Assembly (NCBI GenBank): GCA_029937535.1 | Contig: JAPYPT010000020.1 | Span: forward strand, 1 to 32,585 | Length of the DNA: 32,585 nt | Direction: 5' to 3' | Origin: Alphaproteobacteria bacterium | Lineage (GTDB): Bacteria > Pseudomonadota > Alphaproteobacteria > GCA-2731375 | Part shown: piece after piece, positions 17,509 through 32,262 of the stretch | How positions within the stretch are numbered: the first letter of the stretch is position 1 | How the letters are laid out: the number at the start of each line of letters is the position of its first letter | Made by a program: the position numbers and the translations under genes | The notes under the pieces: model-generated | The model's database searches: none | What the model saw: only the letters and a program-made list of their open reading frames with translations | What the model was told of the DNA's origin: nothing

Positions 17509-18501
17509 TCAGCCGCTGAATTTCACGGACATGTCCAGGAAATCGTTGGTGTAGGTTTTCTTGATGTCGAACGGCGCCTTGAGTTTGAAATAGGCTTCGA
17601 TCAATTTGTAATCCGCGGCCATGCGGGCGGGATCGAAATAGCCCAGCGCGCCATTGCGGGAGCTGGGCGCATCCATCAGTTCCTTGACTAGGGCCCAGTT
17701 GGCGAGGGACGAGCCGCGCTTCAGGCCGCTGTTGGCGGCGATGAGGGCATCGATGCAGGGATCGGCGTTCTTGGCGCAGGCGGCATAGGCCTTTTGCGTT
17801 ACCTGGACGAAACTTTTCACCACGCCCGGATTGGCCTTGAGGTATTTGCCGTTGGCGATCACGGAGTTGCCGTAGGGATTAACACCGATGTCCCTGCCGG
17901 CGACGAAGCCCATGTCATCGCCGAACACTTTCTGGAAGATGAAGTGGATGTTGTAGAACGATGTGGTGACCGCGATGGCGTCCGATTTCAGGGCCGCGAT
18001 CTTGGCATTTGGTTTGATGTTGACCCAAGTTACGCTGTCGGGCGCCATGCCGGAGGCCTTGGCGAAGGCGGGCCACATTTGCCGGGCCGCATCCCACGGC
18101 GGATTGCCGATTTTCTTGCCGGCGAAATCCTTGATGGTTTTGATGCCGGAGCTTTTTTTCCAATAAAAGCCATAGGGCGAATTGGCGTAGATATTAAAGA
18201 CAGCCACCAGGTCGGCGCCCTTGCCCTTGTTGACCAGGGCCGTGCCCAGATCGGCAATGCCGAGCTGGTTTTTGCCAATGCCCACGCGCTGGGATGAGAG
18301 CGTCGAGCCCTTGCCCTGCTCAATGGTTAGATCGATGCCCTTGTCCATATACCAGCCTTGGGATTTGGCCCAATAGACCGGTGCGTGATCGCCACCGGCG
18401 ACCCAATTCAGAATAAAACTGACCTTTTCCGCCGCCTGGGCGGAACCAGCCAAAATAACCGCGGCGCAGATGGCGGCCAGGGTGAGTTTAAAAATTTTCA
18501 T
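17509..18501 (-). CDS. ABC transporter periplasmic substrate-binding protein (NMT1/SsuA-like)
   Basis: This 330-residue protein has a cleavable signal peptide (MKIFKLTLAAICAAVILAG, probable cleavage after SAQA at about residue 23). The mature part begins VSFILNWVAGGDHAPVYWAKSQGWYMDKGIDLTI, the usual opening of NMT1/ThiY/SsuA-type binding proteins for pyrimidines, sulfonates, nitrate and similar small molecules. Its permease and ATPase partners are encoded about 2.7 kb away on the other strand, on the far side of tetR. GGAGG lies 7 bases before the ATG. It is divergent from tetR across a 69-base region holding a perfect palindrome, so it is likely under TetR control. Ligand unknown. Confidence 0.9.
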   Translation of the reverse strand: MKIFKLTLAAICAAVILAGSAQAAEKVSFILNWVAGGDHAPVYWAKSQGWYMDKGIDLTIEQGKGSTLSSQRVGIGKNQLGIADLGTALVNKGKGADLVAVFNIYANSPYGFYWKKSSGIKTIKDFAGKKIGNPPWDAARQMWPAFAKASGMAPDSVTWVNIKPNAKIAALKSDAIAVTTSFYNIHFIFQKVFGDDMGFVAGRDIGVNPYGNSVIANGKYLKANPGVVKSFVQVTQKAYAACAKNADPCIDALIAANSGLKRGSSLANWALVKELMDAPSSRNGALGYFDPARMAADYKLIEAYFKLKAPFDIKKTYTNDFLDMSVKFSG

Positions 18502-18534
18502 GCTTGATCCTCCAAGGGATATTCGTTAGCTCTG

Positions 18535-18550
18535 GTAACCAATTGGTTAC
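18535..18550. promoter_or_regulatory. Putative TetR operator 1 (perfect palindrome)
   Basis: GTAACCAATTGGTTAC is a perfect 16-bp palindrome in the 69-base divergent region between the binding-protein gene and tetR. The same pattern recurs upstream of the dioxygenase gene at 19231-19248. The position and shared sequence suggest the TetR product binds both sites. Confidence 0.68.
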
Positions 18551-18570
18551 TCGAAACATAGGTTGCCCAT

Positions 18571-19209: not shown

Positions 19210-19230
19210 CCTGTTTTGTTTGATGAAGTA

Positions 19231-19248
19231 AGTAACTGTTTGGTTACT
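19231..19248. promoter_or_regulatory. Putative TetR operator 2, before the dioxygenase operon
   Basis: AGTAAC-TGTTTG-GTTACT is an inverted repeat (6-bp arms). Its core, GTAACTGTTTGGTTAC, matches operator 1 at 13 of 16 positions. It ends just before the GGGGAG ribosome site of the dioxygenase gene, so a bound repressor would block transcription start or elongation. A TTGACC at 19206-19211 could be a -35 element, but no good -10 box is visible. Confidence 0.6.
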
Positions 19249-19262
19249 TTGGGGAGCCAATC

Positions 19263-20006
19263 TTGAAAACCCTCGATCCCGATCAGCTGAAAACCTATCG
19301 CGCGCGCGGCCATTTGACCGTTGAAGGTATATTTGGCGAAGCGGAGATTCGGGCCGCCATCGCCGATGCCGAAATCTGGGCGAAAGAAGAAATCGGCAAG
19401 CTGGATGCCGGCCAACAGGCCTGGTACGTCGAAGGCGCGATCACGGATCGGGCCGTGCTGCGTAAATTGGACAATCCCATCTATCTGCGCCCGGCGTTCC
19501 GGTCTCTGGCGGCGAATGAAGGCCTGTTGGCCATGGTGGAACAACTGATTGGCCCGTCGCCCAAGGCCTTTTTCAGCCAGATCTTCTTTAAGGCGGCGGG
19601 GGGCGGTGGACCCAAACCGGTACATCAGGACAATTATTACTTCGGTCCCAATGATCCCGAAGGCATGGTCACGGTCTGGATCGCCCTGGACGACGCGGAC
19701 GAAGGCAACGGCTGTTTGTATTATGCCGATGGCAGCAATTTGGGCGCCACCATCCCCCACACCGCGCCCGAGGGCGAACCATTTAATTTGTTGATCCCGG
19801 ACGATGCCGCTGCTGCTTATGAGATGACGCCGGCGCCCGTCCCACGCGGCGGCGTCTCCTTCCACCACGGCAATACCTTGCACCAATCCTCCGATAACCA
19901 ATCCGACAGACCGCGGCGGGCCTGTGCTATTCATTACGGCAACGGCAATGTGGAATTGGTTCATTCGAACTTGAGCTACGACGCGGATGTCGTGGTTTCG
20001 TTCTAA
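19263..20006 (+). CDS. Phytanoyl-CoA dioxygenase (PhyH) family Fe(II)/2-oxoglutarate oxygenase
   Basis: This 247-residue protein starts with TTG at 19263, supported by GGGGAG 6 bases upstream; no ATG is suitably placed. The Fe(II) triad is visible: His121 and Asp123 (VHQDNYYF) and distal His207 (HHGNTLHQSSDN). Arg219 (RPRRA) is placed to hold 2-oxoglutarate. These enzymes hydroxylate C-H bonds with O2 and 2-oxoglutarate; small bacterial members act on phosphonates, ectoine or quaternary amines rather than phytanoyl-CoA. As first gene after operator 2, it may carry out an activating hydroxylation of the imported substrate (inference). Confidence 0.88.
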   Translation: MKTLDPDQLKTYRARGHLTVEGIFGEAEIRAAIADAEIWAKEEIGKLDAGQQAWYVEGAITDRAVLRKLDNPIYLRPAFRSLAANEGLLAMVEQLIGPSPKAFFSQIFFKAAGGGGPKPVHQDNYYFGPNDPEGMVTVWIALDDADEGNGCLYYADGSNLGATIPHTAPEGEPFNLLIPDDAAAAYEMTPAPVPRGGVSFHHGNTLHQSSDNQSDRPRRACAIHYGNGNVELVHSNLSYDADVVVSF

Positions 20007-20021: not shown

Positions 20022-21098
20022 ATGGCTTTGCATAGAGAGGAATTGCCGGCGGAAGTTCTCTCGCAACTGCGCCAGGGCGTGGTTATCCCGGCCCATCCCC
20101 TGGCCCTGACCGAAGCGCGGGCGTTGGATGAACGCCATCAGCGCGCCCTGACCCGGTATTACCTGGATGCGGGCGCGGGCGGTCTGGCGGTCGGCGTGCA
20201 TGCCACGCAGTTTGAAATTCGCGATGTCGGCCTGTACGAACCGGTGCTGCGCCTGGCAAAGGAAACCGCCACCGCCTGGACCGAGCGGACAACAATCATG
20301 ATCGCCGGCCTGGCGGGACCCACCAGCCAGGCCCTGGGGGAGGCGGACGTGGCGCTGGGCCTGGGCTATCACGCGGGCCTGTTGAGTCTGGCCGCCCACA
20401 AGGGCGCAAGCGAGGACGAACTGATCGCCCATTGTGGGGCGGTATCCGAACGCATTCCCTTGATCGGTTTTTATCTGCAGCCAGCAGTTGGCGGCATTGT
20501 TCTCTCGACCGAATTCTGGCGCCGCTTCGCCGCCCTCGACAACGTCATTGCCATCAAGGTGGCGCCGTTCAACCGCTATCGCACGCTGGATGTGATACGC
20601 GGCGTGGTCGCGGCGGAGGCGGAGGACCGGATCACTCTGTACACGGGCAACGATGATCATATTTTCCTCGATCTGTTGACGCCGTTCGCAGTGCGCCGGG
20701 GCGGGGAAGAGGTCGTGGTGCGTTTCCGGGGCGGGCTGTTGGGACATTGGAGCGTCTGGGTCAAGCCGGCCGTGGACTATCTGGCCCGGGCCCATGCCGC
20801 GGTTGCCGCAGGAGTGGTCGCGGCGGAGTTGCTGCAACTGGACAGCCAGATCACCGATGCCAACGGGGCGTTGTTCGATGTGGTCAACGATTTCGCCGGT
20901 TGTATTGCCGGTTGTCACGAGGTCCTGCGCCGGCAAGGCTTGTTGCAGGGCACCTGGTGCCTGAACCCGGACGAGGCCATGAGCCCCGGCCAGGCGGAGG
21001 AACTGGACCGCGTGATCGCCGACTACCCCCACCTGTGCGACGACGGCTTCGTGGCCGAGAATCTAGAGCGTTGGCTGGCTGGGAGTCCCCATGATTAG
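20022..21098 (+). CDS. Dihydrodipicolinate synthase/N-acetylneuraminate lyase (DapA) family protein
   Basis: This 358-residue TIM-barrel protein is slightly longer than DapA (about 290-300 aa). The Schiff-base lysine is probably Lys179 (VIAIKVAPFNRYRT). The tyrosine of the family's YNxP motif is probably Tyr151 (FYLQPAVGG). The opening segment, VVIPAHPLALTEARALDERHQRALTRYYLDAGAGGLAVGVH, follows the DapA beta-alpha order. Members perform aldol or retro-aldol reactions on pyruvate or 2-oxo acids. Not being a stand-alone lysine gene, it likely acts in the catabolic pathway. It starts 15 bases after the dioxygenase stop. Confidence 0.85.
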   Translation: MALHREELPAEVLSQLRQGVVIPAHPLALTEARALDERHQRALTRYYLDAGAGGLAVGVHATQFEIRDVGLYEPVLRLAKETATAWTERTTIMIAGLAGPTSQALGEADVALGLGYHAGLLSLAAHKGASEDELIAHCGAVSERIPLIGFYLQPAVGGIVLSTEFWRRFAALDNVIAIKVAPFNRYRTLDVIRGVVAAEAEDRITLYTGNDDHIFLDLLTPFAVRRGGEEVVVRFRGGLLGHWSVWVKPAVDYLARAHAAVAAGVVAAELLQLDSQITDANGALFDVVNDFAGCIAGCHEVLRRQGLLQGTWCLNPDEAMSPGQAEELDRVIADYPHLCDDGFVAENLERWLAGSPHD

Positions 21099-21226: not shown

Positions 21227-21997
21227 ATGGATGACGGCCGCGATAAACTGCGTAAGTGGGTGTTGATCATCGTTATGCACCTAGCCGCCCTGGCCGCGTG
21301 GCAGGCCTGGATCACCCTGGGTGAGGTTGAGCCCTATATCATGCCGGCGCCTCTGGACACCTTCGCCACCTTGTTGGAATGGAAGACCTACGCCTGGGGC
21401 CATAACACTCTGATTACCGCCGCCTCGGTGTTCGGCGGCTTCTGGCTGGCGGTTGTGGTGGGGGTTGGCATGGCGGTGCTGTTTTCCTGGTCGCGCTGGC
21501 TGAATGATGCCCTGATGCCCTTGATCGTTTCCCTGAACATGATCCCCAAGGTGGCCCTGGGACCGATCTTTATCGTCTGGTTTTCCTATGGCCTGGGCCC
21601 GAATATCCTGATCGCCTTTTCCATCTGCTTTCTGCCGATCCTGATCACGACATCTCGGGGACTGGGCGAGGTGGAGCCGGAACTGATCGATCTGGTCCGT
21701 ACCCTGCGCGCTTCGCGCTGGCAGATCTTCACCAAGATCCAGTTGCCCGGCGCCCTGCCGTTCATTTTTTCCGGCATGAAGGTGGCCGTGGTGCTGGCGG
21801 TGGCGGGCGCCATCGTGGGTGAGTTCATCGCCTCGGAAGAAGGCCTCGGCTATTTGATGATGCAGGTGCAGGTGACCCTGGACACCGCCGGCATGTTCAT
21901 GGCCGTGCTGATGATTACCGCCGTGGGCGTCAGCCTGTACGCCATCGTCCTGCTGCTGGAACGCCTGCTGGTGGTCTCCGATGCGCGGATGGAATAG
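21227..21997 (+). CDS. ABC transporter permease (SsuC/TauC-like)
   Basis: This 256-residue inner-membrane protein has about six hydrophobic helices. The cytoplasmic EAA loop, which docks the ATPase, is visible at about residues 147-182: GEVEPELIDLVRTLRASRW followed by IFTKIQLPGALPFIF. Family members form the channel for sulfonate, taurine, nitrate or pyrimidine uptake. It is followed directly by the ATPase gene (stop TAG at 21995-21997, next ATG at 21998). Its partner is the binding protein at 17509-18501. The ribosome site upstream of 21227 is weak, and the inverted repeat may affect expression of this gene relative to the upstream ones. Confidence 0.9.
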   Translation: MDDGRDKLRKWVLIIVMHLAALAAWQAWITLGEVEPYIMPAPLDTFATLLEWKTYAWGHNTLITAASVFGGFWLAVVVGVGMAVLFSWSRWLNDALMPLIVSLNMIPKVALGPIFIVWFSYGLGPNILIAFSICFLPILITTSRGLGEVEPELIDLVRTLRASRWQIFTKIQLPGALPFIFSGMKVAVVLAVAGAIVGEFIASEEGLGYLMMQVQVTLDTAGMFMAVLMITAVGVSLYAIVLLLERLLVVSDARME

Positions 21998-22768
21998 ATG
22001 AGCGCCAACCCCGCATTCATCCAGCTCGACGGCGTGCGCAAGGTATATCGCGGCCGGCGGGCGGATTTTCTCGCCGTCTCCGATGTCACCTTCGATGTTT
22101 CATTGGGCGAACTGGTCTGCATGGTCGGGCCATCGGGCTGTGGCAAAACGACCGTGCTGAAGATCCTGGCCGGCTTGCATTCCCACGAGGATGGCACGGT
22201 CCGCATCGGCTCGAATGCCGAAAAATTCGACCCCGCCCGTGATATCGGCATGGTCTTCCAACAGCCCCTGCTGTTGAAATGGCGCCGGGTCATCGACAAC
22301 GTCTTGCTGCCGGCCGAAATTCTGGGCCTGAACATGGCCGAGGCACGGGACCGGGCCGGGCATCTGCTGGAGATGGTCGGCCTCACCGGTTTCGCGGAGA
22401 GCTATCCCTATGAATTGTCGGGCGGCATGCAGCAGCGCGCCGCCATCGCCCGCGCCCTGGTGCATGATCCGAAATTGATCCTGATGGACGAACCCTTCGG
22501 GGCCCTGGACGCCTTGACGCGGGAAAAAATGAACCTGGAGTTGCTGCGCATCTGGAGCGAGAGCGGCAAGACCATCGTCTTCGTGACCCACGGCATACAG
22601 GAGGCCGTGTTCCTGGGCAGCCGGGTGGTTGTGCTGACGGCGGGCCCCGCCCGCATGGCTGATAATTTTTTGGTCGATCTGCCGTATCCGCGGACCCTGG
22701 ACATGAAAACACAGGAAGCCTTCGGCGATTACACCCGCCGGATCTATAAATTATTGGGAATGGAGTGA
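21998..22768 (+). CDS. ABC transporter ATP-binding protein (SsuB/TauB-like)
   Basis: This 256-residue ATPase has Walker A GPSGCGKT (44-51), a Q-loop around Gln88-Gln89 (MVFQQP), the ABC signature LSGGMQQR (140-147), Walker B LILMDEP (160-166) followed by the D-loop GALDALTR, and an H-loop His in VFVTHGI. It energises uptake through the adjacent permease. Abutting genes make equal expression with the permease likely. The last region (about 205-256) is short, as in the nitrate/sulfonate importer group, without an added regulatory domain. Confidence 0.93.
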   Translation: MSANPAFIQLDGVRKVYRGRRADFLAVSDVTFDVSLGELVCMVGPSGCGKTTVLKILAGLHSHEDGTVRIGSNAEKFDPARDIGMVFQQPLLLKWRRVIDNVLLPAEILGLNMAEARDRAGHLLEMVGLTGFAESYPYELSGGMQQRAAIARALVHDPKLILMDEPFGALDALTREKMNLELLRIWSESGKTIVFVTHGIQEAVFLGSRVVVLTAGPARMADNFLVDLPYPRTLDMKTQEAFGDYTRRIYKLLGME

Positions 22769-22787: not shown

Positions 22788-23939
22788 ATGACCGAAAAAA
22801 GACTCGGCATCATCATGAACGGCGTCACCGGGCGCATGGGCAAGAACCAGCATCTGATCCGCTCGATCCTGGAAATCATGAACGCGGGCGGCCTGGAGCT
22901 GGCCGACGGCAGCCGCGTCATGCCGGATCCGATCCTGGTGGGGCGGGATGCGGGCCGGGTCGGCGCCTTGGCGCGGGCGCATGGCCTAAGCCGGTGGACC
23001 TCCGATCTGGACGCGGCAATGGCCAACCCCGACGACACGCTGTTTTTCGATGCCGCCACCACCCAGGCCCGCGCCGGGCTGCTGACAAAGGCGATCGAGG
23101 CCGGCAAGGACATCTATTGCGAAAAACCAACCTCCGACAGCCTGGCCGATGCCTATGGCGTTTATCAAAAGGCCAAGGCCGCCGGCATCAAACATGGCGT
23201 GGTGCAGGATAAATTGTTTCTGCCGGGGATCGGCAAACTGAAATACCTGATCGACGCCGGTTTCTTCGGCCGCATTCTTTCGGTGCGGGGCGAGTTCGGT
23301 TATTGGGTCTTCGACGGTGATTTGCAGCCCGCCCAACGCCCGTCCTGGAATTACAAAAAAAGCGAGGGCGGCGGCATTATCCTCGATATGCTGTGCCATT
23401 GGCGCTATGTGCTGGACAACACCTTTGGCGCCGTGAAATCGGTCAGTTGTCTGGGCGCCACCCACATCCCCAAACGCTGGGACGAGAACGATGCGGCCTA
23501 CGAGGCGGACGTGGACGATGCCGCCTATGCCACCTTCCAGCTTGAAGGCGGGATCGTGGCGCATTTCAATTCTTCATGGGCCACTCGTGTGCGCCGGGAC
23601 GATTTATTGACCCTGCATGTGGACGGCACCCATGGTTCCGCCGTGGCCGGCCTGCGCCGCTGCCGCAGCCAGGCCCTGGTCAACACGCCGACGCCGGTCT
23701 GGAACCCCGACATTCCCCCCGCCATCGATTACCAGGATGGCTGGGAGGAGGTGCCCGACCCGGTCCCCTACGACAATGCCTTCAAGGCGCAGTGGGAATT
23801 GTTCATCCGTCATCTTTACGGCGACGGGCCCTTTCCCTGGGATCTTCTGGCTGGCGCCCGCGGCGTGCAATTGGCGGAGTTGGGTTTGCAAAGCTGGGCC
23901 GAGCGGCGCTGGATGGATATTCCCGATTTGGAGGCCTAG
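22788..23939 (+). CDS. Gfo/Idh/MocA-family NAD(P)-dependent oxidoreductase
   Basis: This 383-residue protein has a dinucleotide-binding opening (LGIIMNGVTGRMGKNQHL, 6-23), in which the usual GxGxxG is degenerate as NGVTGRMG. The family EKP motif is at 112-114 (DIYCEKPTSDS). The C-terminal substrate domain begins near residue 140, with GGGIILDMLCHWRYVLD around 198-214, where members carry the active-site Asp/His pair. Family members oxidise or reduce cyclic polyols, sugars and sugar acids. It follows the ABC ATPase with a 19-base gap. A seven-codon reading frame starting ATGAGC at 22771 lies in the gap and is probably not meaningful. Confidence 0.88.
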   Translation: MTEKRLGIIMNGVTGRMGKNQHLIRSILEIMNAGGLELADGSRVMPDPILVGRDAGRVGALARAHGLSRWTSDLDAAMANPDDTLFFDAATTQARAGLLTKAIEAGKDIYCEKPTSDSLADAYGVYQKAKAAGIKHGVVQDKLFLPGIGKLKYLIDAGFFGRILSVRGEFGYWVFDGDLQPAQRPSWNYKKSEGGGIILDMLCHWRYVLDNTFGAVKSVSCLGATHIPKRWDENDAAYEADVDDAAYATFQLEGGIVAHFNSSWATRVRRDDLLTLHVDGTHGSAVAGLRRCRSQALVNTPTPVWNPDIPPAIDYQDGWEEVPDPVPYDNAFKAQWELFIRHLYGDGPFPWDLLAGARGVQLAELGLQSWAERRWMDIPDLEA

Positions 23940-23941
23940 GC

Positions 23942-25108
23942 ATGGCGACCCTGAACCTGCCAGTTGGCAATGGTCGACTGGAATCCTTCTCCACCAGCAC
24001 GCCGAGAGATTTCCCAGCCCGCGCCAACCGCCCCTTCAACCGCATCGCCTATTCGGCCGCCCACGTGGTGGCGGATCCCTTGTCGGACGCCGATCCCTGG
24101 CTGGAGGCGGCGATCGATTGGGATGCCACCATCGCCTACCGCGCCAAGCTCTATGATCTCGGGCTCGGCGTGGCGGAGGCCATGGATACGGCCCAGCGCG
24201 GCATGGGGCTGGACTGGGCCGCCAGTCAGACCTTGATCCGCCGCAGTCTGGAGGCCGCCCGCCATATCCCCGGCGCCCGTATCGCCTGTGGCGCCGGTAC
24301 GGATCATTTGGAACCGTCGGCGGATCTGCGGCTCGATGACGTGATCCGCGCTTATGAGGAACAGGTCGAATTCGTCGAAGAGAAAGGCGGACGCATCATC
24401 CTGATGGCTAGCCGGGCGCTCGCCGCCTGCGCCACCTCTCCCGACGACTACGCCTTGGTCTATGACCGTATCTTGAGTCAGGTTCGCGAGCCGGTCCTGA
24501 TCCATTGGCTGGGCGAGATGTTCGACCCGGCCCTGGCCGGTTACTGGGGCCATGACGATCACATGGCGGCCATGGATGTCTGCCTCGATATGCTGGCCGC
24601 CAACGCCAACCAGATCGACGGCATCAAGATCTCGCTGTTGGACAAGGACAAGGAAATTGCCATGCGCCGGCGTCTGCCCGCGGACGTGGCGATGTACACC
24701 GGCGATGATTTCAACTACGCCGAACTGATCGCCGGCGACGAGATGGGCTATTCCCATGCCCTGTTGGGTATTTTCGACGCCATCGCGCCCGCCGCCTCCG
24801 CCGCCCTGGATGCCTTCGCGGGCGGAGACGAGGCGCGCTTTCACGACATTCTGGCCCCCACCGTGCCGCTCTCCCGCCACATCTTCCGCGCCCCCACCCG
24901 GTTCTACAAAACCGGCGTGGTCTTCATGGCCTGGCTGAATGGCCATCAGGACCATTTCGTCATGGTCGGCGGCCAGCAAAGCGCCCGATCCCTCGCCCAT
25001 TTGGCCGAACTTTTCCGCCTGGCCGATGCCGCCGGCCTGCTGGCTGATCCGGATTTGGCCAGTAACCGCATGGGAGCATTGTTGGCCACTCAGGGCGTCA
25101 CGGATTAG
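23942..25108 (+). CDS. DUF993-family TIM-barrel protein
   Basis: This protein has 388 residues from the ATG at 23942, two bases after the dehydrogenase stop; the frame is open further upstream but overlaps that gene. It is recognisable as DUF993, a distant relative of the DapA/aldolase superfamily: FNRIAYSAAHVVADPLSD (32-49), ACGAGTDHLEP (115-125), EPVLIHWLGEMFDPALAGYWG (183-203) and IDGIKISLLDKDKE (225-238), where Lys229 stands where a DapA-type Schiff-base Lys would be. The enzyme activity of the family is not established. The co-located Gfo/Idh/MocA and sugar isomerase genes suggest aldol cleavage or lyase chemistry on a keto-sugar (inference). Confidence 0.86.
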   Translation: MATLNLPVGNGRLESFSTSTPRDFPARANRPFNRIAYSAAHVVADPLSDADPWLEAAIDWDATIAYRAKLYDLGLGVAEAMDTAQRGMGLDWAASQTLIRRSLEAARHIPGARIACGAGTDHLEPSADLRLDDVIRAYEEQVEFVEEKGGRIILMASRALAACATSPDDYALVYDRILSQVREPVLIHWLGEMFDPALAGYWGHDDHMAAMDVCLDMLAANANQIDGIKISLLDKDKEIAMRRRLPADVAMYTGDDFNYAELIAGDEMGYSHALLGIFDAIAPAASAALDAFAGGDEARFHDILAPTVPLSRHIFRAPTRFYKTGVVFMAWLNGHQDHFVMVGGQQSARSLAHLAELFRLADAAGLLADPDLASNRMGALLATQGVTD

Positions 25109-25568: not shown

Positions 25569-26775
25569 ATTGTTCGCTGGGGCAGGCGGCCTTGGCATGG
25601 GATTGAGCCTTGCTGGATTTGAAGCATGCGCGGTCGTGGAGTGGGATCGATGGGCATGCGACACGATGAACGAAAATCGACGGCGCGATTTCCCCTTATT
25701 GCGGAACTGGCCAATTACCCATGGGGATGTCCGAGATTTTAGCTATGAATCACTGGAAGATAAAATTGATTTGGTCGCTGGCGGACCGCCCTGCCAACCT
25801 TTCTCCATGGGCGGCAAGCACCGCGGCTTCGAAGATAATCGTGATATGTTTCCCGCCACGGTCGATGCGATCCGGCGCCTTCGGCCAAAGGCTTTCATTG
25901 TCGAGAATGTGAAGGGTCTGACGCGAACCGCGTTTGAAAATTATTTTCAGTATATTTTACTTCAATTGACTTTTCCCGAACTTCGGCGCCGGGGAAATGA
26001 AGACTGGCTTGCGCATTTGGGTAGATTGGAACGTACCAAGACGTCCAACAAACGAAGTGGCCTAACCTATAAATTGGTACACAGAGTGCTAAACGCCGCC
26101 GACCATGGCGTGCCTCAAAAACGTGAGCGGGTATTTATCGTCGGTTTTCGAAGTGATATCGGTGCAAAATGGTCGTTTCCCGAACCGACGCATAGCCTGG
26201 ATGCCTTGCTTGAAGATCAGTGGGTTGGGGGAGAGTATTGGGACCGGCATGAAATTTCCAAGCGAGCCCGACCGGCGATGCCGGATCGATACGAAAAACG
26301 AATTGAAAATTTGAAAAAGTCAAACTTTCGTCCCATGTTGGACTCCAAACCTTGGCGGACCGTTCGGGACGCCTTGATTGGGCTACCGAACCCGGAAACC
26401 GGTGAAGGCGATGGTGAACTGTTCAATCATCGTTTTCAGGCGGGCGCACGGCCATACGTTGGCCATACGGGCAGTCCCATGGATTTGCCGGCGAAAGCCT
26501 TAAAGGCGGGAGATCATGGCGTGCCAGGCGGCGAAAACATGCTCGTTAAGATCGATGGTCAGGTCCGTTATTTCACTGTTCGCGAAGCGGCGAGGCTTCA
26601 GACATTTCCAGATGGCTACCTTTTTCATGGATCGTGGAGCGAAACCATGCGTCAACTTGGGAATGCCGTCCCGGTTCGTCTGGCCCATGTGATAGCCAGT
26701 AGTGTCGGTGTGGAACTTGCACGCCATGATGAACGGGAGCTGAAACGCCTGGCAAAACGTTTGGCACCGACATGA
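25552..26775 (+). CDS. DNA (cytosine-5)-methyltransferase of a type II R-M system
   Basis: This 407-residue protein has all major C5-MTase motifs: motif I VELFAGAGGLGMGLSLAGFE (5-24), motif IV GGPPCQPFSMGG with catalytic Cys81, motif VI FIVENVKG with Glu118, motif VIII QKRERVFIVGF, motif IX around RPYVGHTGSPMDLPAKAL, and motif X TVREAARLQTFPDGY then QLGNAVPVRLA. It is the modification partner of the adjacent GIY-YIG endonuclease and overlaps it by 4 bases (ATGA at 26772). If the endonuclease is Eco29kI-like, the target is CCGCGG (inference). Sampled lines inside the gene have 38-52% GC by hand count, against about 60% nearby. Confidence 0.93.
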   Translation: MLKTVELFAGAGGLGMGLSLAGFEACAVVEWDRWACDTMNENRRRDFPLLRNWPITHGDVRDFSYESLEDKIDLVAGGPPCQPFSMGGKHRGFEDNRDMFPATVDAIRRLRPKAFIVENVKGLTRTAFENYFQYILLQLTFPELRRRGNEDWLAHLGRLERTKTSNKRSGLTYKLVHRVLNAADHGVPQKRERVFIVGFRSDIGAKWSFPEPTHSLDALLEDQWVGGEYWDRHEISKRARPAMPDRYEKRIENLKKSNFRPMLDSKPWRTVRDALIGLPNPETGEGDGELFNHRFQAGARPYVGHTGSPMDLPAKALKAGDHGVPGGENMLVKIDGQVRYFTVREAARLQTFPDGYLFHGSWSETMRQLGNAVPVRLAHVIASSVGVELARHDERELKRLAKRLAPT

Positions 26776-27386
26776 GTGAACCCGAGGTTTTCAACCCTCT
26801 GGACAAACGCAATTTGGGTGAAAGCGTATCGGATGCCTTGCTGCGTGGGCAGGCACGGCCAATGGGCGAGTTGGATAGCTTTATTGGCGCCGGAATCTAT
26901 GTGATCTATTATTCGGGTGCGTTTGATCCATATTTACCTATCTCGGAACGCAACCAAGGCGACGCCTTTGAAATGCTTTTATATGTCGGGAAGGCCGTTC
27001 CGCCTGGCGCGCGAAAAGGCGGCTTTGGTCTCGACGCGGACCCAGGCAATGCTCTGAGCTCACGGCTGCGTCAGCATGCGGCAAGCATTGATCAAACAAG
27101 CAACCTGAATATCGAGGATTTCGATTGTCGTTTTCTCGTGGTTGAAGATATTTGGATCCCGTTGGGTGAAAATCTACTCATCACGAAATTTGGGCCGATC
27201 TGGAATAGACTTATTGACGGATTTGGAAATCACGATCCGGGCAGCGGTCGATATAATCAAGTTCGCTCAAGATGGGATGTGCTCCATCCTGGACGGCCAT
27301 GGGCGGAACGACTACGAGATAGACCGGAGAGCGCGGAGCAAATTTCGAGAGAACTGAAAACATACCTCCGAGACTTGTTGCGATGA
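26772..27386 (+). CDS. Eco29kI-family GIY-YIG restriction endonuclease
   Basis: This 204-residue protein opens with FNPLDKRNLGESVSDALL (7-24), the recognised start of the Eco29kI family. The GIY strand is GAGIYVIYYSG (39-49) and the YVGK strand is LLYVGKAVP (69-77). A catalytic Arg/His pair lies in LSSRLRQHAAS (95-105), and the metal-binding Glu is in GENLLITKFGPIWN (132-145). Members cut CCGCGG as a dimer, and its own methyltransferase protects that sequence. No separate control (C) protein gene is seen, so regulation probably relies on gene order and coupling to the methyltransferase. Base composition is A/T-richer than the genes downstream. Confidence 0.88.
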   Translation: MSEPEVFNPLDKRNLGESVSDALLRGQARPMGELDSFIGAGIYVIYYSGAFDPYLPISERNQGDAFEMLLYVGKAVPPGARKGGFGLDADPGNALSSRLRQHAASIDQTSNLNIEDFDCRFLVVEDIWIPLGENLLITKFGPIWNRLIDGFGNHDPGSGRYNQVRSRWDVLHPGRPWAERLRDRPESAEQISRELKTYLRDLLR

Positions 27387-27419
27387 CAAGATTTGTCCGG
27401 CTCTAGCGACGAACATGTA

Positions 27420-28439
27420 GTGGTGAATCCAACAATCCTGCAAATAGGCTTTGGCAATTTTGGGCCGACCCACCTGGCGGCCTGGCGTTCGTTGGGATTG
27501 GCGGATGGCTTGCTTGTGGTCGATCCGGAGTTGGCGGCACGGCGGCGTTGTTTGGACTTGGGGCTGCCCGAAAGCCGTGTCGGGGGGGATGTCGCGGAAT
27601 TTCTTGATCGGGCGGATTTGGTGGTCGTGCTGGCGCCCACCGACCGGCACTTCGAAGTTTGCCAACCGCTGCTGGCGGCGGGCAAGCACCTGTTTATTGA
27701 AAAGCCCATGACCGCGACCCTGGCCGAGGCCGAGGGACTGCGTGATCTGGTTAAGGATCAAGTGGTGCAGGTGGGATTTTATTTCCGCGCTCATCCCCTG
27801 GCGAAACTGGCCAAGGCGGAGGTTGATGCGGGGCATCTGGGCGATCTACGCTACATCTCGGCAAGGTTTCATGGTTACAAGCGGGCCCGTGGCGACAGCG
27901 GCGTGGTGGGCAATGACGCGGTGCATTTCATCGATCAGGCGAACTGGATGATGGGCGCGCTGCCTGTTGCCGTGGACGCGGTGACGCGGGATCATTTCGG
28001 CCGGGGCTATGACGATCTGGCCCTGATCCGGCTGTTCTATCCCTCTGGCGCCCTGGCCCATATCGAAGTTGGGTGTATTCAACCCGGGCGCTGGAATGAC
28101 AATATCGTGCCCGGCGCCACGCAGACCAAGGAATTCATGGTGGCGGGCAGTGAAGGTGCCGCGGAGATCGATTATCAAACCAGCGAATTGCGCCTGCATC
28201 GGGTCCGTCACGAATTGACGGACGGGCTATGGCGGCCCGACAACCGGGGCGTCGAAATGCCCCATGCCGCCGTGGTCGAGCCGCACGATGTCGTGGCGGC
28301 GGAATTCAGCGCCTTTCTTGAGGCGGTGGATGGTAAGGCGCCGCCCCTGGCGGGCATGGAGGAATGCGGCGTCGGCATGGCGCGAATTCTCGATGCTATT
28401 CACCGCTCGGCGGAACGGGAACAAAGGATCGCGTTGTGA
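27420..28439 (+). CDS. Second Gfo/Idh/MocA-family oxidoreductase
   Basis: This protein has about 339 residues from GTG at 27420. The alternatives are GTG at 27423 and TTG at 27393, and none has a clear ribosome site. The Rossmann motif is ILQIGFGNFGPTHLAAW, and the EKP motif is in HLFIEKPMTATL. The substrate domain contains GVVGNDAVHFIDQANWMMG with the family Asp/His pair. It is a sugar or polyol dehydrogenase/reductase, not a close copy of the first one at 22788. It begins right after the restriction gene, which may have displaced its original translation signals. The next gene overlaps its stop by four bases. Confidence 0.85.
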   Translation: MVNPTILQIGFGNFGPTHLAAWRSLGLADGLLVVDPELAARRRCLDLGLPESRVGGDVAEFLDRADLVVVLAPTDRHFEVCQPLLAAGKHLFIEKPMTATLAEAEGLRDLVKDQVVQVGFYFRAHPLAKLAKAEVDAGHLGDLRYISARFHGYKRARGDSGVVGNDAVHFIDQANWMMGALPVAVDAVTRDHFGRGYDDLALIRLFYPSGALAHIEVGCIQPGRWNDNIVPGATQTKEFMVAGSEGAAEIDYQTSELRLHRVRHELTDGLWRPDNRGVEMPHAAVVEPHDVVAAEFSAFLEAVDGKAPPLAGMEECGVGMARILDAIHRSAEREQRIAL

Positions 28440-29266
28440 AATTCGCCTTATGTAACGAAGTGATCGCGGACATGAGCTTCGCCGCGCAATGCGACTTTGC
28501 CGCCGCCCTGGGCTATGACGGCCTGGAGGTGGCGCCCTTTACCCTGTCGGATGAGCCGCACGAGGGGGGCGCTGTTGATATCGTCGCCACGCGGCGGGCC
28601 GCACGGGATGCCGGCGTTGAAATCGTTTCCCTGCACTGGCTGCTTGTCGCGCCTTCCGGTTTGTCGATCACCGATCCCGACGATGATACCAGGGCGCGCA
28701 CGGTGGATGTGATGCGCCGCCTGATCGGCCTTTGCGGCGAATTGGGCGGCACGGCTCTGGTGCATGGCTCACCCCTGCAGCGGCGCTTGACCCCTGGCGA
28801 TGAAGATGGCGCCCGGCAACGGGCCATCGATTGTTTCGCTGCTGTCGCCGACGACGCCAAGGCCGCCGGTGTCACCTATTGTATTGAGGCATTGGCGCCC
28901 GAGGATGCGGAATTCATCAACCGCATCGCTGAGGCTGCGGCCATGGTCGACACCATTGGCAGTCCCCATATCCGCACCATGCTCGATTGCTGCGCCACGG
29001 CGCGGCTGGATGAAGACAGCCCCGCCGAACTGATCGAGCGTTGGCTGCCCAGCGGCCATTTGGCCCATGTCCAGGTCAACGACGGCAACGGCCGGGGACC
29101 GGGGCAGGGCGCGATGGCCTTTGCGCCCATCCTGTCGGCCTTGCAACGGCACGGCTATGACGGCACGGTGGCGGTGGAACCATTTGACTATTATCCCGAC
29201 GGCCACGCGGCGGCGGCCCGCGCCATCGGCTATTTACGCGGTATAGAGGAGGCCTTGCGTGACTGA
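28436..29266 (+). CDS. Sugar phosphate isomerase/epimerase family (AP_endonuc_2 TIM barrel), copy 1
   Basis: This protein has 276 residues from the GTG at 28436, chosen because AAGGA lies 7 bases upstream and the codon overlaps the previous stop as GTGA. The xylose-isomerase-like TIM barrel is seen in GYDGLEVAPFTL (about 23-34), VEIVSLHWLL, GGTALVHGSPLQRRL, VTYCIEALAPEDAEF with the metal Glu, IRTMLDCCATAR, LAHVQVNDGNGRGPGQGAM and GTVAVEPFDYYPDG. The metal-ligand pattern of Glu/Asp/His/Glu on successive strands fits inosose isomerase (IolI/IolE)-like enzymes that interconvert keto-sugars or polyols. Confidence 0.88.
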   Translation: MKFALCNEVIADMSFAAQCDFAAALGYDGLEVAPFTLSDEPHEGGAVDIVATRRAARDAGVEIVSLHWLLVAPSGLSITDPDDDTRARTVDVMRRLIGLCGELGGTALVHGSPLQRRLTPGDEDGARQRAIDCFAAVADDAKAAGVTYCIEALAPEDAEFINRIAEAAAMVDTIGSPHIRTMLDCCATARLDEDSPAELIERWLPSGHLAHVQVNDGNGRGPGQGAMAFAPILSALQRHGYDGTVAVEPFDYYPDGHAAAARAIGYLRGIEEALRD

Positions 29267-30638
29267 TCCCATAAAGCTTTCCGTCCAAGAGGTGCAACTG
29301 TTCGAGCGTGACGTGACCCTGCGCATGCCCTTCCGCTTTGGCGTTGTCACGCTGCGGGAAAGCCCCCAGGTCTTTGCCAGGGTGCGGATACGGCTGGATG
29401 ATGGCCGGGAAGGCTGGGGACTATCGGCCGAGATGCTGGCGCCGAAATGGTTCGACAAGAATTTGGAGCTCAGCAACGAAGACAACTTCGATCAATTGCG
29501 CCTGGCACTTGCCACCGCCACCGGCCTTTATCGTGACGCCGCGCCCGCCACGGCCTTCGGGCTGTTCCGCTCCAACTATGATGAGCAGATCCGTATTTGC
29601 GGCGAACGGGGGGATAACTCCCTGGTCGCCAACTATGGCCCGGCGGTGCTGGACCGCGCGGTTCTCGATGCGCTCTGCCGCCTGCACGAAGTTTCGTTCT
29701 ACACAGCGATCCAGGGCAATCTGCCGGGTATCGAAAGCGATGAATATGACATGGACCGGTTCCTGGCGGGATTGCGCCCGGCGGCACGCATCCATGCCCG
29801 CCATACGGTGGGCATGGTCGATCCGATCCGGGAGAACCCCGAGCCCGTGGGTGACGGTCTGCCCGAAACCCTGCAAGAGGTCATCGCGGCCTATGGCCAT
29901 CGGTATTTCAAGATCAAGGTCTGCGGTGATTTGGACGAGGACGTGGCGCGGCTGGTGGAAATTGCCGATGTGCTGGATGAGCGCCAGGATGACTACATCA
30001 TCTCTCTCGACGGCAACGAACAATATAACGACGTCGCCGGTGTGTCCGCCCTGCTGGACGGGATCGAAGGCGACGAGCGGTTGAAGCGCTTCAATGATGC
30101 CATCCTGTTCGTGGAACAGCCCATTTCCCGCGCCGTGGCCTTGGACGTTGATGTCAGCCTGCTCAGCGCCCGCAAGCCTGTGATCCTGGATGAGGCCGAT
30201 GGCTTCCTGGGCGCCTTTCCCAGAGGCCGGGAACTTGGCTATCGCGGCGTTTCCTCGAAGACCTGCAAGGGCTTCTACAAATCAATCCTGAACCGGGGAC
30301 GCTGCGCCCACTGGGGCGAGGGCTATTTCATGTCGGGGGAGGATTTGACGACCCAGGCCGGCATCTCCGTGCAGCAGGATCTGGCCCTGGTCAATCTGCT
30401 TGGCATCACGCATGTGGAGCGCAACGGCCATCACTACGTCAACGGGATGTCGGGCGTGCCGGAGGCCGAGCAGGCCGCTTTCCGCGGCGCCCATCCGGAT
30501 ATGTACCACCTTGCCGACGGCGTCACCCGGCTGGCTATCACGGACGGTGAGATCGCCATTGGCTCGTTGGACGCGGTTGGTTTTGCGTATGGCGCGGAGC
30601 CGGATTTCACGGCCATGCGGGAGGCCGGACATGGCTGA
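29259..30638 (+). CDS. Enolase-superfamily (mandelate racemase/muconate lactonizing-like) dehydratase
   Basis: This 459-residue protein starts with GTG at 29259 (AGAGGAGG upstream), overlapping the previous stop by 8 bases. Superfamily residues are visible: the base pair Lys218/Lys220 (YFKIKVCGDLD), metal ligands Asp251 (SLDGNEQY), Glu286 (FVEQP) and Asp311/Glu312 (VILDEADG), and Lys334 (VSSKTCKG) on the final strand. It is 60-100 residues longer than typical mandelate racemase members, with an extended N-terminal part. It may dehydrate a sugar acid to a 2-keto-3-deoxy acid, feeding the aldolase at 31480. It is cytoplasmic, and the substrate is unknown. Confidence 0.84.
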   Translation: MTDPIKLSVQEVQLFERDVTLRMPFRFGVVTLRESPQVFARVRIRLDDGREGWGLSAEMLAPKWFDKNLELSNEDNFDQLRLALATATGLYRDAAPATAFGLFRSNYDEQIRICGERGDNSLVANYGPAVLDRAVLDALCRLHEVSFYTAIQGNLPGIESDEYDMDRFLAGLRPAARIHARHTVGMVDPIRENPEPVGDGLPETLQEVIAAYGHRYFKIKVCGDLDEDVARLVEIADVLDERQDDYIISLDGNEQYNDVAGVSALLDGIEGDERLKRFNDAILFVEQPISRAVALDVDVSLLSARKPVILDEADGFLGAFPRGRELGYRGVSSKTCKGFYKSILNRGRCAHWGEGYFMSGEDLTTQAGISVQQDLALVNLLGITHVERNGHHYVNGMSGVPEAEQAAFRGAHPDMYHLADGVTRLAITDGEIAIGSLDAVGFAYGAEPDFTAMREAGHG

Positions 30639-31452
30639 TCTGGCGCGGCTGTCGATTAATCAGGCCACCACGCGGGAACAACACAGCCTGGCCCAGGCGA
30701 TCGCGGCCTATGCCGGGGCCGGCGTTACCGGTATCTCGATCTGGCGGGACAAGCTGGCCGACTGCGGTCTGGGGGAAGCGGCCGCCATGCTCAAGGACCA
30801 TGGGCTGCGGGTTTCGGGCCTGTGCCGTGCCGGGCAGTTCCCGGCATCGGATGCAGCCGAACGTCAGGCCCGGCTCGATGATAACAGGTTGGCGGTGGAT
30901 CAGGCCGTAGCCCTGGGGGCCGAATGCCTGATCGTCGTTGCCGGCGGCCTGCCGGAAGGTTCAAGGGACCTGCCCGGCGCCCGAGCAATGATCCGCGACG
31001 GCCTGGGCGCGGTGATGGACCATGCCCGCGCCGCCCAAATGCCCGTCGCCATCGAACCCCTGCATCCCATGTATGCCGCCGATCGGTGCGCTATCAATAC
31101 AATGAGCCAGGCGCTGGATCTTTGCGACGAACTGGGGCCGGGCCTTGGCGTTGCGGTGGATGTCTATCATGTCTGGTGGGACCCCGATTTGCAGGCCCAG
31201 ATCGAACGCGCCGGCGATCGCGTGCTGGCCTATCACGTCTGCGATTGGCTGGTTCCGACCACGGATTTATTGCTGGATCGCGGCATGATGGGCGACGGTG
31301 TCATCGATATACCGCAAATCAGCGAGTGGGTTGACGGCACCGGCTATAATGGGCTGATAGAAGTAGAAATCTTCTCGGCCGAGAATTGGTGGAAACGGCC
31401 CGCCGACGAAGTGATCCGCACCTGCCGGGAACGCATGTTATCATCTGTATAA
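30631..31452 (+). CDS. Sugar phosphate isomerase/epimerase family (AP_endonuc_2 TIM barrel), copy 2
   Basis: This protein has 273 residues from the ATG at 30631, which overlaps the enolase-like stop by 8 bases. The barrel is seen in GVTGISIWRDKL, LRVSGLCRAGQFP, CLIVVAGGLPEGSRDL, PVAIEPLHPMYAADRCAINT (metal Glu and substrate His), LGVAVDVYHVWWDP (metal Asp and His), VLAYHVCDWLVPTTDLLLDRGMMGDGVIDI, and LIEVEIFSAENWW (final metal Glu). The HVWWDP and RGMMGDGVID motifs are classical for IolE/hydroxypyruvate isomerase-like sugar isomerases. It is clearly different in sequence from copy 1, suggesting a separate step in the pathway. Confidence 0.9.
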   Translation: MADLARLSINQATTREQHSLAQAIAAYAGAGVTGISIWRDKLADCGLGEAAAMLKDHGLRVSGLCRAGQFPASDAAERQARLDDNRLAVDQAVALGAECLIVVAGGLPEGSRDLPGARAMIRDGLGAVMDHARAAQMPVAIEPLHPMYAADRCAINTMSQALDLCDELGPGLGVAVDVYHVWWDPDLQAQIERAGDRVLAYHVCDWLVPTTDLLLDRGMMGDGVIDIPQISEWVDGTGYNGLIEVEIFSAENWWKRPADEVIRTCRERMLSSV

Positions 31453-31479
31453 ATAACTGAATTTTGGGGAGGACGCCGC

Positions 31480-32262
31480 ATGGCTGTCATCGAGAATGTT
31501 ACCAAGCAGAAACTGGCGGCGGGCGAATTGTCCCTCGGCCTCGGCGTGCGTATCGCGCGCGGGGTGGAGATTGCCAAGGTGGCCAAGGTGTGCGGCTATG
31601 ACTGGCTGTTCATCGATATGGAGCACAGCCCCCTCTCCCTGGAGACCGTGGCGGATATCAGCCTGGCCGGATTGGATGCGGGTTGCACGCCCATCGTCAG
31701 GGCCTCGTCCCATCTGCACCACCATGCCAGCCGGCCCCTGGATGCGGGCGCGCAAGGCGTTGTGGTGCCGCATGTCAATTCGGCGGAGGAGGCGCGGCGC
31801 GTGGTCGATCAATGTCTCTATCCGCCCATCGGTCACCGCTCTCTCGCGGGCGGCGCGGCGATCCTGGAATATGAGAGCCTGCCCATGGCCGAGGCCACGA
31901 AGGTGATCAATAAAAATTTGCTGGTTGTGGTCATGCTGGAAAGTCCGGAGGCCATCGCCAACGCCGATGAAATTGCCGCCGTCGAAGGCGTCGATGTGTT
32001 GTTGATCGGCACCAACGATCTATGTGCCGAGATGGGTATCTCCGGGCAGTATGACCATGATGACGTGGTCGCCGCCTATGACGCGACTGTTTCGGCCTGC
32101 CGCAATAACGGCAAATGGGCCGGCATGGGCGGTATCTATGATGATCTGGCGGCGAAGTATATCAAGATGGGCGTACGCATGGTTCTGGGCGGCAGTGATC
32201 TGTCCTATCTGATGGCTGCCGCGAAGGGCAGGGCGGGGGCCCTGCACGGCATCGATTTATAA
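31480..32262 (+). CDS. HpcH/HpaI-type class II aldolase (2-keto-3-deoxy acid aldolase)
   Basis: This 260-residue protein has GGAGG 8 bases before the ATG. The HpcH/HpaI family residues are visible: general base His49 (FIDMEHSPLS), Arg74 (IVRASSH), metal Glu154 (VVMLESPEAI) and Asp180 (IGTNDLCAEMG). Members cleave 2-keto-3-deoxy-aldonates or 4-hydroxy-2-ketoacids to pyruvate plus an aldehyde, with a divalent metal. The length agrees with the family. It is the last enzyme of the catabolic run, consistent with the terminal carbon-splitting step (inference). Confidence 0.9.
   Translation: MAVIENVTKQKLAAGELSLGLGVRIARGVEIAKVAKVCGYDWLFIDMEHSPLSLETVADISLAGLDAGCTPIVRASSHLHHHASRPLDAGAQGVVVPHVNSAEEARRVVDQCLYPPIGHRSLAGGAAILEYESLPMAEATKVINKNLLVVVMLESPEAIANADEIAAVEGVDVLLIGTNDLCAEMGISGQYDHDDVVAAYDATVSACRNNGKWAGMGGIYDDLAAKYIKMGVRMVLGGSDLSYLMAAAKGRAGALHGIDL

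What the first reader, a model, noticed from the sequence alone, without database searches (positions are those of the whole stretch)
17509..32262. Catabolic cluster for an unknown substrate: ABC uptake, TetR, dioxygenase, paired dehydrogenases and isomerases, dehydratase and aldolase
Seen: a signal-peptide binding protein, permease and ATPase, a PhyH dioxygenase, a DapA-family protein, DUF993, two distinct Gfo/Idh/MocA enzymes, two distinct AP_endonuc_2-type sugar isomerases, an enolase-superfamily protein with the Lys/metal pattern, and an HpcH/HpaI aldolase. From the family roles this forms a plausible path: import, hydroxylation, oxidation, isomerisation, dehydration to a 2-keto-3-deoxy acid, then retro-aldol cleavage to pyruvate and an aldehyde. 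I do not recognise this exact set as a described pathway. The binding protein type is unusual for sugars, and the oxygenase could act on a phosphonate, sulfonate or quaternary amine attached to a polyol.
Basis: partly seen in the sequence, partly recalled or inferred. Interest (0 to 1): 0.7.

Follow-up and report, generated by a model that had tools for sequence, protein, structure and literature searches.

The report
Conserved catabolic operon, unknown acidic substrate
An alphaproteobacterium, probably marine, carries a widespread and self-regulated set of genes that very probably imports and breaks down some small acidic sugar-like compound; the compound is unknown, several of the enzymes have solved structures but no known job, and a restriction-modification cassette sits in the middle of the set.

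Summary
The genes are as described. Three corrections. (1) A type II restriction-modification cassette (25128-27386) sits inside the operon; nine other genus genomes lack it there, one has a decayed copy. (2) The block extends left to 12718. (3) Oxygenase and HpcH/HpaI aldolase are not core: 6 and 0 of 93 loci outside the genus. The recurring set is TetR, SDR, DapA-like, Iso1, enolase-like, Gfo1, DUF993, Iso2, with an exchangeable NMT1-ABC, TctABC or TRAP importer. In 387 class genomes enolase-like and Gfo1 co-occur in 28, 3.3 expected. A palindrome, GTAACY-N4-RGTTAC, occurs exactly twice in the 5.58-Mb draft genome, both beside tetR here, and recurs at many related clusters. Gfo1, DUF993 and Iso2 have close solved structures without an assigned substrate; the term DUF993 is in no held paper. 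Best reading: a TetR-controlled, non-phosphorylating catabolic operon for an anionic polyhydroxylated compound, cleaved by Schiff-base lyases. Substrate, TetR binding and order of steps are unproven.

The parts
12718..13803 (+). Extended SDR (PF01370), 'Epi4': left edge of the block as far as followed
   Evidence: Pfam 35 bits; orthologue in 41 of 93 loci outside the genus; no PDB sequence match at E 0.001
13685..14638 (+). GNAT with Acetyltransf_18 domain, syntenic accessory gene
   Evidence: Pfam; 9 of 93 loci outside the genus; next to Epi4 in the genus
14651..15283 (+). Second GNAT, present in some genus members only
   Evidence: Pfam; 0 of 93 outside the genus
17509..18501 (-). NMT1/SsuA-like periplasmic binding protein
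   Evidence: PF09084 150 bits
18535..18550 (.). Operator candidate 1, perfect 16-bp palindrome GTAACCAATTGGTTAC between binding protein and tetR
   Evidence: Site kept in place in 9 genomes, window included; perfect in 4 of them; with 19232 the only GTAACY-N4-RGTTAC sites in the draft genome
18571..19209 (+). TetR regulator (TetR_C_29)
19232..19247 (.). Operator candidate 2, between tetR and PhyH, ahead of the main operon
19263..20006 (+). PhyH Fe(II)/2-oxoglutarate dioxygenase, accessory
   Evidence: PF05721 96 bits; H121, D123, H202, H207, R218 conserved in 12; 6 of 93 loci outside the genus
20022..21098 (+). Divergent DapA-fold lyase with Schiff-base-type K179
   Evidence: model pLDDT 93 matches the DHDPS fold, TMt up to 0.86; K179 invariant in 31
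21227..21997 (+). ABC permease
21998..22768 (+). ABC ATPase (taurine/nitrate type)
22788..23939 (+). Gfo/Idh/MocA dehydrogenase Gfo1
   Evidence: close to solved 3oqb, E 1.3e-171, named only 'Oxidoreductase'
23942..25108 (+). DUF993, DapA-like barrel with conserved K231 (numbered from 23936)
   Evidence: PF06187 624 bits; close to solved 4dnh, 'Uncharacterized protein'; K231 in 97% or more of 60
25128..25568 (+). Vsr mismatch endonuclease, inserted R-M cassette
   Evidence: absent at this junction in 9 of 10 other genus genomes
25552..26775 (+). C5-cytosine methyltransferase, inserted R-M cassette
26772..27386 (+). Eco29kI-type restriction endonuclease, inserted R-M cassette
   Evidence: PF09517 225 bits; in 2 of 31 genomes searched, own included, same place
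27393..28439 (+). Second Gfo/Idh/MocA dehydrogenase Gfo2, mainly this family; start codon uncertain
   Evidence: 5 of 93 loci outside the genus
28433..29266 (+). AP_endonuc_2 isomerase/epimerase/lyase Iso1
   Evidence: E152, D185, H212, E249 conserved in 48; 65 of 93 loci
29259..30638 (+). Divergent enolase-superfamily enzyme with Lys/Lys pattern
30631..31452 (+). AP_endonuc_2 protein Iso2
   Evidence: close to solved 3qc0 ('sugar isomerase') and 3ju2 ('uncharacterized protein SMc04130'), E 4e-108, and 7vpf ('Xylose isomerase'), E 4e-79
31480..32262 (+). HpcH/HpaI aldolase, accessory; right edge of the block
   Evidence: 0 of 93 outside the genus at 40% identity or more

Best explanation
A TetR-controlled, non-phosphorylating catabolic operon for a small, negatively charged, polyhydroxylated compound (sugar-acid or cyclitol-acid type). 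Shown: gene content, synteny, co-occurrence, a cluster-specific palindrome pair, intact catalytic residues, exchangeable importers. Inferred: TetR sits on two palindromes beside its own gene and represses both the binding-protein gene and the enzyme operon until the substrate or an intermediate releases it. The NMT1-type ABC importer (elsewhere TctABC or TRAP) brings the anion in. Gfo1, with or without Epi4, oxidises a hydroxyl to a ketone. The metal-dependent barrels Iso1 and Iso2 epimerise, isomerise or beta-eliminate next to that ketone. The enolase-like enzyme abstracts a proton alpha to a carboxylate. The DapA-fold proteins (DapA-like and DUF993) cleave or dehydrate a resulting 2-oxo acid through a lysine Schiff base, giving central 2-oxo acids. 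PhyH, Gfo2 and the HpcH/HpaI aldolase widen the range in this lineage. The R-M cassette is a passenger that left the catabolic reading frames intact.
For: Synteny in the genus. Core recurs far outside: of 93 distinct loci outside the genus brought in by the enolase-like gene, Iso1 65, Gfo1 54, TctA 51, DUF993 49, DapA-like 42, Epi4 41, Iso2 40, TetR 36, against 0 for the cyclase/TPR gene and for each R-M gene. Class-level co-occurrence in 387 genomes. A Nitratireductor plasmid has, by its annotation, TctCBA-TetR-isomerase-enolase-Gfo-DUF993-isomerase as one run. Operator: two sites in the whole draft genome, both here; 15 of 17 sites in the 10 genus genomes searched lie at the cluster; relaxed motif 78 hits in 49 of 125 loci against 0 in three simulations and 12 for five permuted palindromes together. 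Catalytic residues conserved (their roles recalled). Models: DapA fold, enolase superfamily. Importers swap among NMT1-ABC, TctABC and TRAP.
Against: No substrate, assay or transcript. Iso1 is gone from the cluster in G001, G003, G004 and G007 and truncated in G006 and G008, with a 55-57% homologue elsewhere in only three of those six. G010 has lost TetR and nearly all of PhyH; G011, same family, shows no TetR, PhyH, ABC genes or aldolase in the fetched stretch. Parts occur apart: 4 of 32 enolase-like genomes lack Gfo1 and 4 lack DapA-like, and in 9 of 20 DUF993 neighbourhoods neither window-like Gfo1 nor Iso2 is near. Rhizobium plasmids carry the enolase-like gene with GH39, KduI/IolB and a hydroxyacid dehydrogenase instead. 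The operator is missing from most sequences (strict form in 29 of 131; relaxed form in 22 of 69 distant loci), and its reversed control also occurs about 1.5 times per genus genome (15 in 10). Fisher tests ignore shared ancestry.
Confidence: 0.6

Rival explanations
1. A variant of the keto-glycoside route (levoglucosan LgdA-B1-B2-C type): Gfo1 oxidises a glycoside or anhydrosugar at C3, Iso1/Iso2 beta-eliminate and hydrate, Gfo2 reduces the 3-keto sugar back.
For: Two Gfo/Idh/MocA plus two PF01261 proteins is the enzyme set of that route (PMC10066097, passages seen). Best NCBIfam hit of Gfo1 is levoglucosan dehydrogenase; 6a3f is the second PDB hit of Gfo1 and the first of Gfo2.
Against: 62 bits against a cut-off of 650 for LgdA. 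Gfo2 in only 5 of 93 loci, so the reduction step is missing elsewhere. The scheme has no role for the enolase-like, DapA-like or DUF993 proteins. Importers are acid-type.
Confidence: 0.13
2. An analogue of the oxidative uronate pathway: Epi4 as uronate dehydrogenase, the enolase-like protein as aldarolactone cycloisomerase, DapA-like as keto-deoxy-aldarate dehydratase, for a different uronic or aldaric acid.
For: Same three superfamilies in logical order (Udh, Gci, KdgD: PMC6353982, passages seen; their superfamilies are recalled). A keto-deoxy-D-galactarate dehydratase, 4ur7, is among the fold matches of the DapA-like model. TctABC/TRAP importers fit sugar acids. The Rhizobium relatives of the enolase-like gene sit with KduI/IolB and GH39.
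Against: No sequence match of Epi4 or the enolase-like protein to any PDB chain. The Lys/Lys pattern is not the Lys/His type that I recall for Gci. No semialdehyde dehydrogenase in the block. Does not explain Gfo1-DUF993-Iso2.
Confidence: 0.15
3. Two or more separate pathways that share a locus: TetR-Gfo1-DUF993-Iso2 as one unit and Epi4-DapA-Iso1-Eno as another.
For: TetR-Gfo1-DUF993-Iso2 stands without Eno in the fetched stretch, e.g. L192 and Pseudoroseomonas. Ramlibacter-type loci have Epi4-DapA-Tct-Iso1-Eno without the trio nearby. The R-M cassette and other inserts lie between DUF993 and Gfo2.
Against: Genome-level co-occurrence; one apparent operon with one operator pair in most of this genus; the same motif fronts both kinds of gene in other families.
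Confidence: 0.2

Closest known systems
Levoglucosan LGDH pathway (LgdA, LgdB1, LgdB2, LgdC)
   Same: Two Gfo/Idh/MocA dehydrogenases and two PF01261 barrels beside an ABC importer (PMC10066097, passages)
   Different: Far below the LgdA model cut-off; adds enolase-like, DapA-like, DUF993, SDR; acid-type importers; TetR
Oxidative hexuronate pathway of Agrobacterium (Udh, Gci, KdgD)
   Same: Dehydrogenase, cycloisomerase, dehydratase, non-phosphorylating (PMC6353982, passages)
   Different: No sequence match of the first two enzymes to any solved structure; extra Gfo, isomerase and DUF993 genes
Uncharacterised S. meliloti proteins SMc04130 and SMc04132
   Same: SMc04130 is the deposited name of 3ju2, close to Iso2. 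4dnh, close to DUF993, is SMc04132 by my recollection. The locus numbers suggest neighbours; their genome region was not looked at
   Different: No function given; the one paper found lists SMc04132, 04133, 04135, 04138 and 04139 with negative values in one table (PMC12542648, one passage seen)
Eco29kI-type R-M systems with Vsr
   Same: Vsr, C5-methyltransferase and PF09517 nuclease; a Paraburkholderia plasmid has the same three gene kinds at 65% over 87% of the cassette
   Different: Sits inside a catabolic operon, same strand, no gene broken

Membership tests
Levoglucosan LGDH pathway | LgdA-level match (NCBIfam NF052479, cut-off 650 bits) | tested here: not met
   Gfo1 62 bits, Gfo2 45 bits
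Levoglucosan LGDH pathway | Two Gfo/Idh/MocA and two PF01261 genes together | tested here: met
Levoglucosan LGDH pathway | Activity on levoglucosan | not testable with these tools
   needs assay
Oxidative uronate pathway | SDR recognisably related to solved proteins such as Udh | tested here: not met
   0 PDB sequences at E 0.001; NCBIfam only 19 bits, to another family
Oxidative uronate pathway | Enolase-superfamily cycloisomerase related to solved proteins such as Gci | tested here: not met
   0 PDB sequences at E 0.01; fold match only
Oxidative uronate pathway | DapA-family keto-deoxy-aldarate dehydratase | tested here: inconclusive
   Fold match incl. 4ur7 at 16% identity; activity not testable
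myo-Inositol pathway (IolG) | TIGR04380 cut-off 355 bits | tested here: not met
   52 and 55 bits
Enolase superfamily | Fold plus KxK, three carboxylate ligands, second catalytic residue | tested here: met
   Model matches; residues invariant in 37; roles of the residues recalled
Enolase superfamily | Pfam MR_MLE_C gathering score 29.4 | tested here: not met
   23.9 bits
DapA/DHDPS superfamily (DapA-like protein) | Fold and Schiff-base lysine | tested here: met
   lysine role recalled
DUF993 (PF06187) | Pfam gathering score 24 | tested here: met
   624 bits
HpaI 4-hydroxy-2-oxoheptanedioate aldolase | TIGR02311 cut-off 369 bits | tested here: not met
   150 bits; general family PF03328 met
Methylphosphonate hydroxylase (PhyH) | NF052437 cut-off 500 bits | tested here: not met
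   42 bits
Eco29kI-type R-M | PF09517 nuclease beside a C5-methyltransferase | tested here: met
Eco29kI-type R-M | Cleavage and methylation of CCGCGG (site recalled) | not testable with these tools
   site depletion was no evidence

The most novel reading that the evidence does not exclude
An undescribed catabolic pathway, spread over Alpha- and Betaproteobacteria, for an abundant but unrecognised anionic compound, in which DUF993 performs a lyase reaction not yet known and TetR uses a dedicated GTAACC-N4-GGTTAC operator. Three of its enzymes already have solved structures awaiting a substrate.
Probability: 0.45. Interest if true: 0.65.

Novelty: new variant of a known kind. Interest (0 to 1): 0.5.

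Why it matters
Of 387 sampled genomes of the class, 32 hold the enolase-like gene and 24 hold it with both Gfo1 and the DapA-like gene; many Betaproteobacteria carry it too with much of the set beside it. The substrate is therefore probably common in soil and sea. Structural biology left close relatives of Gfo1, DUF993 and Iso2 solved but without a substrate; tying them to one regulated operon gives a common question, and the operator and the exchangeable importers make it testable.

Tried and rejected
CCGCGG depletion as a sign of an active Eco29kI-like system: 17 found in the window against 36.9 expected, but all eight relatives looked at, seven of them without the cassette, are short of it too; rejected.

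Link to glycolysis: in several Betaproteobacteria the cluster lies beside genes that look, by their first residues, like transketolase, GAPDH, phosphoglycerate kinase and pyruvate kinase (by eye, no family search); taken as chromosomal context.

Internal TGA in DapA-like hits: in the one checked (G128) it is the normal stop, reached because the match runs past the end; the others were not checked.

Inositol, levoglucosan and uronate pathways: see the membership rows. Hydroxyproline betaine epimerase was considered because, as I recall, one fold hit (4h2h) is such an enzyme; I know of no Gfo or isomerase partners there, and the paper search gave nothing useful.

Caveats on counts. The 93 loci are what is left of 94 after one duplicate (L123); L145 and the genus loci L078-L086 had been left out beforehand as copies of genomes already held; one of the 93 (L031, G012) is from the window's own family. 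A gene counts there at 40-65% identity or more, depending on the gene, at E 1e-10 or less; many contigs end inside the cluster, so partner counts are lower bounds. One search held both L061 and L123, so its 42 hits are 41 sites. The orthologue counts include shadow frames and were not used. One search kept 80 of 134 relatives. In one search I set the gene lists by hand: 9 of 41 short or weak enolase-like matches and 5 of 45 Gfo1 matches (41-49% identity) were left out.
Full report
What is there. The window is one whole contig (C124, 32,585 bases) of a 5.58-Mb draft genome. Its nearest relatives in the named collection are metagenome genomes titled Rhodospirillaceae, Alphaproteobacteria or Proteobacteria bacterium; that they are marine I infer from isolate names. 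Reading order: binding protein (minus), tetR, PhyH, DapA-like, permease, ATPase, Gfo1, DUF993, Vsr, methyltransferase, Eco29kI-like nuclease, Gfo2, Iso1, enolase-like, Iso2, HpcH/HpaI aldolase.

A passenger in the middle. Vsr, C5-methyltransferase and an Eco29kI-type nuclease (225 bits to PF09517) fill 25128-27386. In nine of the ten other genus genomes the DUF993 and Gfo2 matches lie 6-42 bases apart; the tenth, G008, has a 1.3-kb remnant in the same place. There Vsr is nearly whole, and the methyltransferase is cut to its first 166 residues and joined in frame to residues 92-204 of the nuclease. PF09517 occurs in 2 of 31 genomes searched (own plus 30 relatives, G010 to G014 among them), these two. 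Cassette identity between them (80-81% of bases) is like that of neighbouring genes (81-85%), so I infer one old insertion, inherited and decaying in one branch; the placing of G002, which lacks it, is weakly supported (0.45). Two genomes of the same family but other genera have other DNA at this junction (2.4 and 3.2 kb). No catabolic gene is broken.

The true extent. In the genus an extended SDR and a GNAT gene lie upstream of the binding protein in the same order as at 12718-14638 in the window. SDR-GNAT-binding protein-DapA runs also occur in Betaproteobacteria. A cyclase/TPR gene at 15690-17453 of the window has no match in the fetched stretches of 11 relatives, though those of G005 and G008 do not reach that side. 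To the right, after the aldolase, relatives carry genes that look like molybdate uptake (by first residues and an ATPase match), so I place the edge there.

Is it a unit? Yes by four tests. Synteny: the block is conserved in the genus. Neighbourhood: in 93 distinct loci outside the genus brought in by the enolase-like gene, Iso1 65, Gfo1 54, DUF993 49, DapA-like 42, SDR 41, Iso2 40, TetR 36; window genes serving as controls (cyclase/TPR and each of the three R-M genes) 0. Genome level: among 387 class genomes enolase-like 32, Gfo1 40, DapA-like 44; pairs 28, 28 and 32 against 3.3, 3.6 and 4.5 expected; all three 24 against 0.38; without the own genus still 23 of 27 enolase-like genomes hold Gfo1 (ancestry not corrected). 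Regulation: next paragraph.

The operator. Between the divergent binding-protein and tetR genes lies a perfect palindrome, GTAACCAATTGGTTAC (18535-18550). The site is kept in place in 9 genomes, window included, perfect in 4, while its surroundings vary. A second, GTAACTGTTTGGTTAC (19232-19247), lies between tetR and PhyH, 15 bases before the main operon. GTAACY-N4-RGTTAC occurs nowhere else in the draft genome. In the 10 genus genomes searched, 15 of 17 sites are at the cluster; the other two are on other contigs of G007 and G008, and G005, whose contig is short, has none. The reversed control pattern occurs 15 times in the same genomes, so position and not number is the evidence; five genomes outside the genus show one site in all. 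In the window plus 130 loci the pattern occurs 42 times (41 sites after one duplicate) in 29 sequences, 39 of the 42 within 200 bases of a match to a cluster gene (TetR, BP, PhyH, TctC, Iso1, Gfo1, DapA-like and others), and never in three simulations. A relaxed form gives 78 hits in 49 of 125 loci (10 of 16 genus and family, 11 of 20 class, 22 of 69 distant, 6 of 20 DUF993 loci) against 12 hits for five permuted palindromes together. None of four literal spellings is in the held papers. The site thus follows the cluster across families with both ABC and Tct importers, which supports one shared inducer; TetR binding itself is inferred.

Importers. Window-like NMT1-ABC genes occur in 18 of 93 loci, TctA in 51 (10 with both), TRAP receptor DctP in 8; a Rhizobium paralogue uses an oligopeptide-type ABC importer. 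By family knowledge TctABC and TRAP carry organic anions; that is why I think of an anionic substrate. PhyH occurs only beside the window-like ABC genes (6 of 6; Fisher 2e-5), so it probably prepares a particular form of the substrate.

Enzymes. Gfo1 keeps the EKP and D-x3-H residues typical of the family (roles recalled). Iso1 and Iso2 keep acidic and histidine residues of the metal-ligand kind; Iso1 is distantly like D-psicose/tagatose 3-epimerases. The enolase-like model (pLDDT 91) matches enolase-superfamily structures of several subgroups at 13-20% identity: uncharacterised ones first, then N-acyl amino acid racemase/OSBS, dipeptide epimerase, muconate-lactonising enzyme, and also mandelate racemases. 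K218-x-K220 and K334 suggest the Lys/Lys branch; sugar-acid dehydratases, as I recall, use His. DUF993 and the DapA-like protein share no significant sequence similarity, but both keep the lysine at the Schiff-base position (K231, K179). Gfo1, DUF993 and Iso2 are close to solved 3oqb, 4dnh and 3qc0/3ju2/7vpf, which bear only family-type or 'uncharacterized' names.

What weakens the story. Iso1 is missing from the cluster in four genus members and cut in two; three of those six have a 55-57% homologue elsewhere. G010 lacks TetR and nearly all of PhyH; G003 lacks PhyH; G011 shows no TetR, PhyH, ABC genes or aldolase in its stretch. So no strict linear order can rest on these genes. DUF993 exists in other settings. 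The substrate is not identified.

Known or not. The term DUF993 is in none of the held papers; SMc04132 is in one, in a table (one passage seen). Searches for the gene set gave nothing. Most subscription papers are not held, so this is weak evidence of novelty. The levoglucosan and oxidative uronate pathways are the nearest in logic (passages seen) and fail sequence tests for membership. I file it as a new variant of a known kind: a regulated, non-phosphorylating catabolic operon built of known superfamilies, with orphan members and an unknown substrate.

Noticed in passing
window 25128-27386; L021 (G008): Type II R-M cassette (Vsr, C5-MTase, Eco29kI-like) inside a catabolic operon, with an in-frame MTase-nuclease fusion remnant in a relative at the same site.
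   Followed up: yes
window 15690-17453: Adenylate/guanylate cyclase domain with TPR repeats lies between the GNAT genes and the binding protein; no match in the fetched stretches of 11 relatives.
   Followed up: partly
L022, L025, L027, L028 (absent); L021, L024 (cut): Iso1 lost or cut between Gfo2 and the enolase-like gene in 6 of 10 other genus members.
   Followed up: partly
L029 and L030, DUF993-Gfo2 junction: Other DNA (2.4 kb; 3.2 kb holding TctC- and TctA-like genes) at the same junction as the R-M cassette, a possible insertion hotspot.
   Followed up: partly
L121:3213-4217 and 21 of 93 loci: A short MetE-like protein (Meth_synt_2) often lies by the cluster, 14 of 21 times beside the window-like ABC genes; role unknown.
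   Followed up: no
L158, L159 (Rhizobium plasmids): Enolase-like paralogue (about 51%) with GH39, KduI/IolB, AP_endonuc_2 and 2-hydroxyacid dehydrogenase; 92 of 128 plasmid records with a match are Rhizobium, two neighbourhoods viewed.
   Followed up: partly
window 11623-12717 (minus): Zinc alcohol dehydrogenase directly left of the SDR; a gene of similar look sits there in L020, L022, L028 and L029 (cluster c33); not compared by sequence.
   Followed up: no
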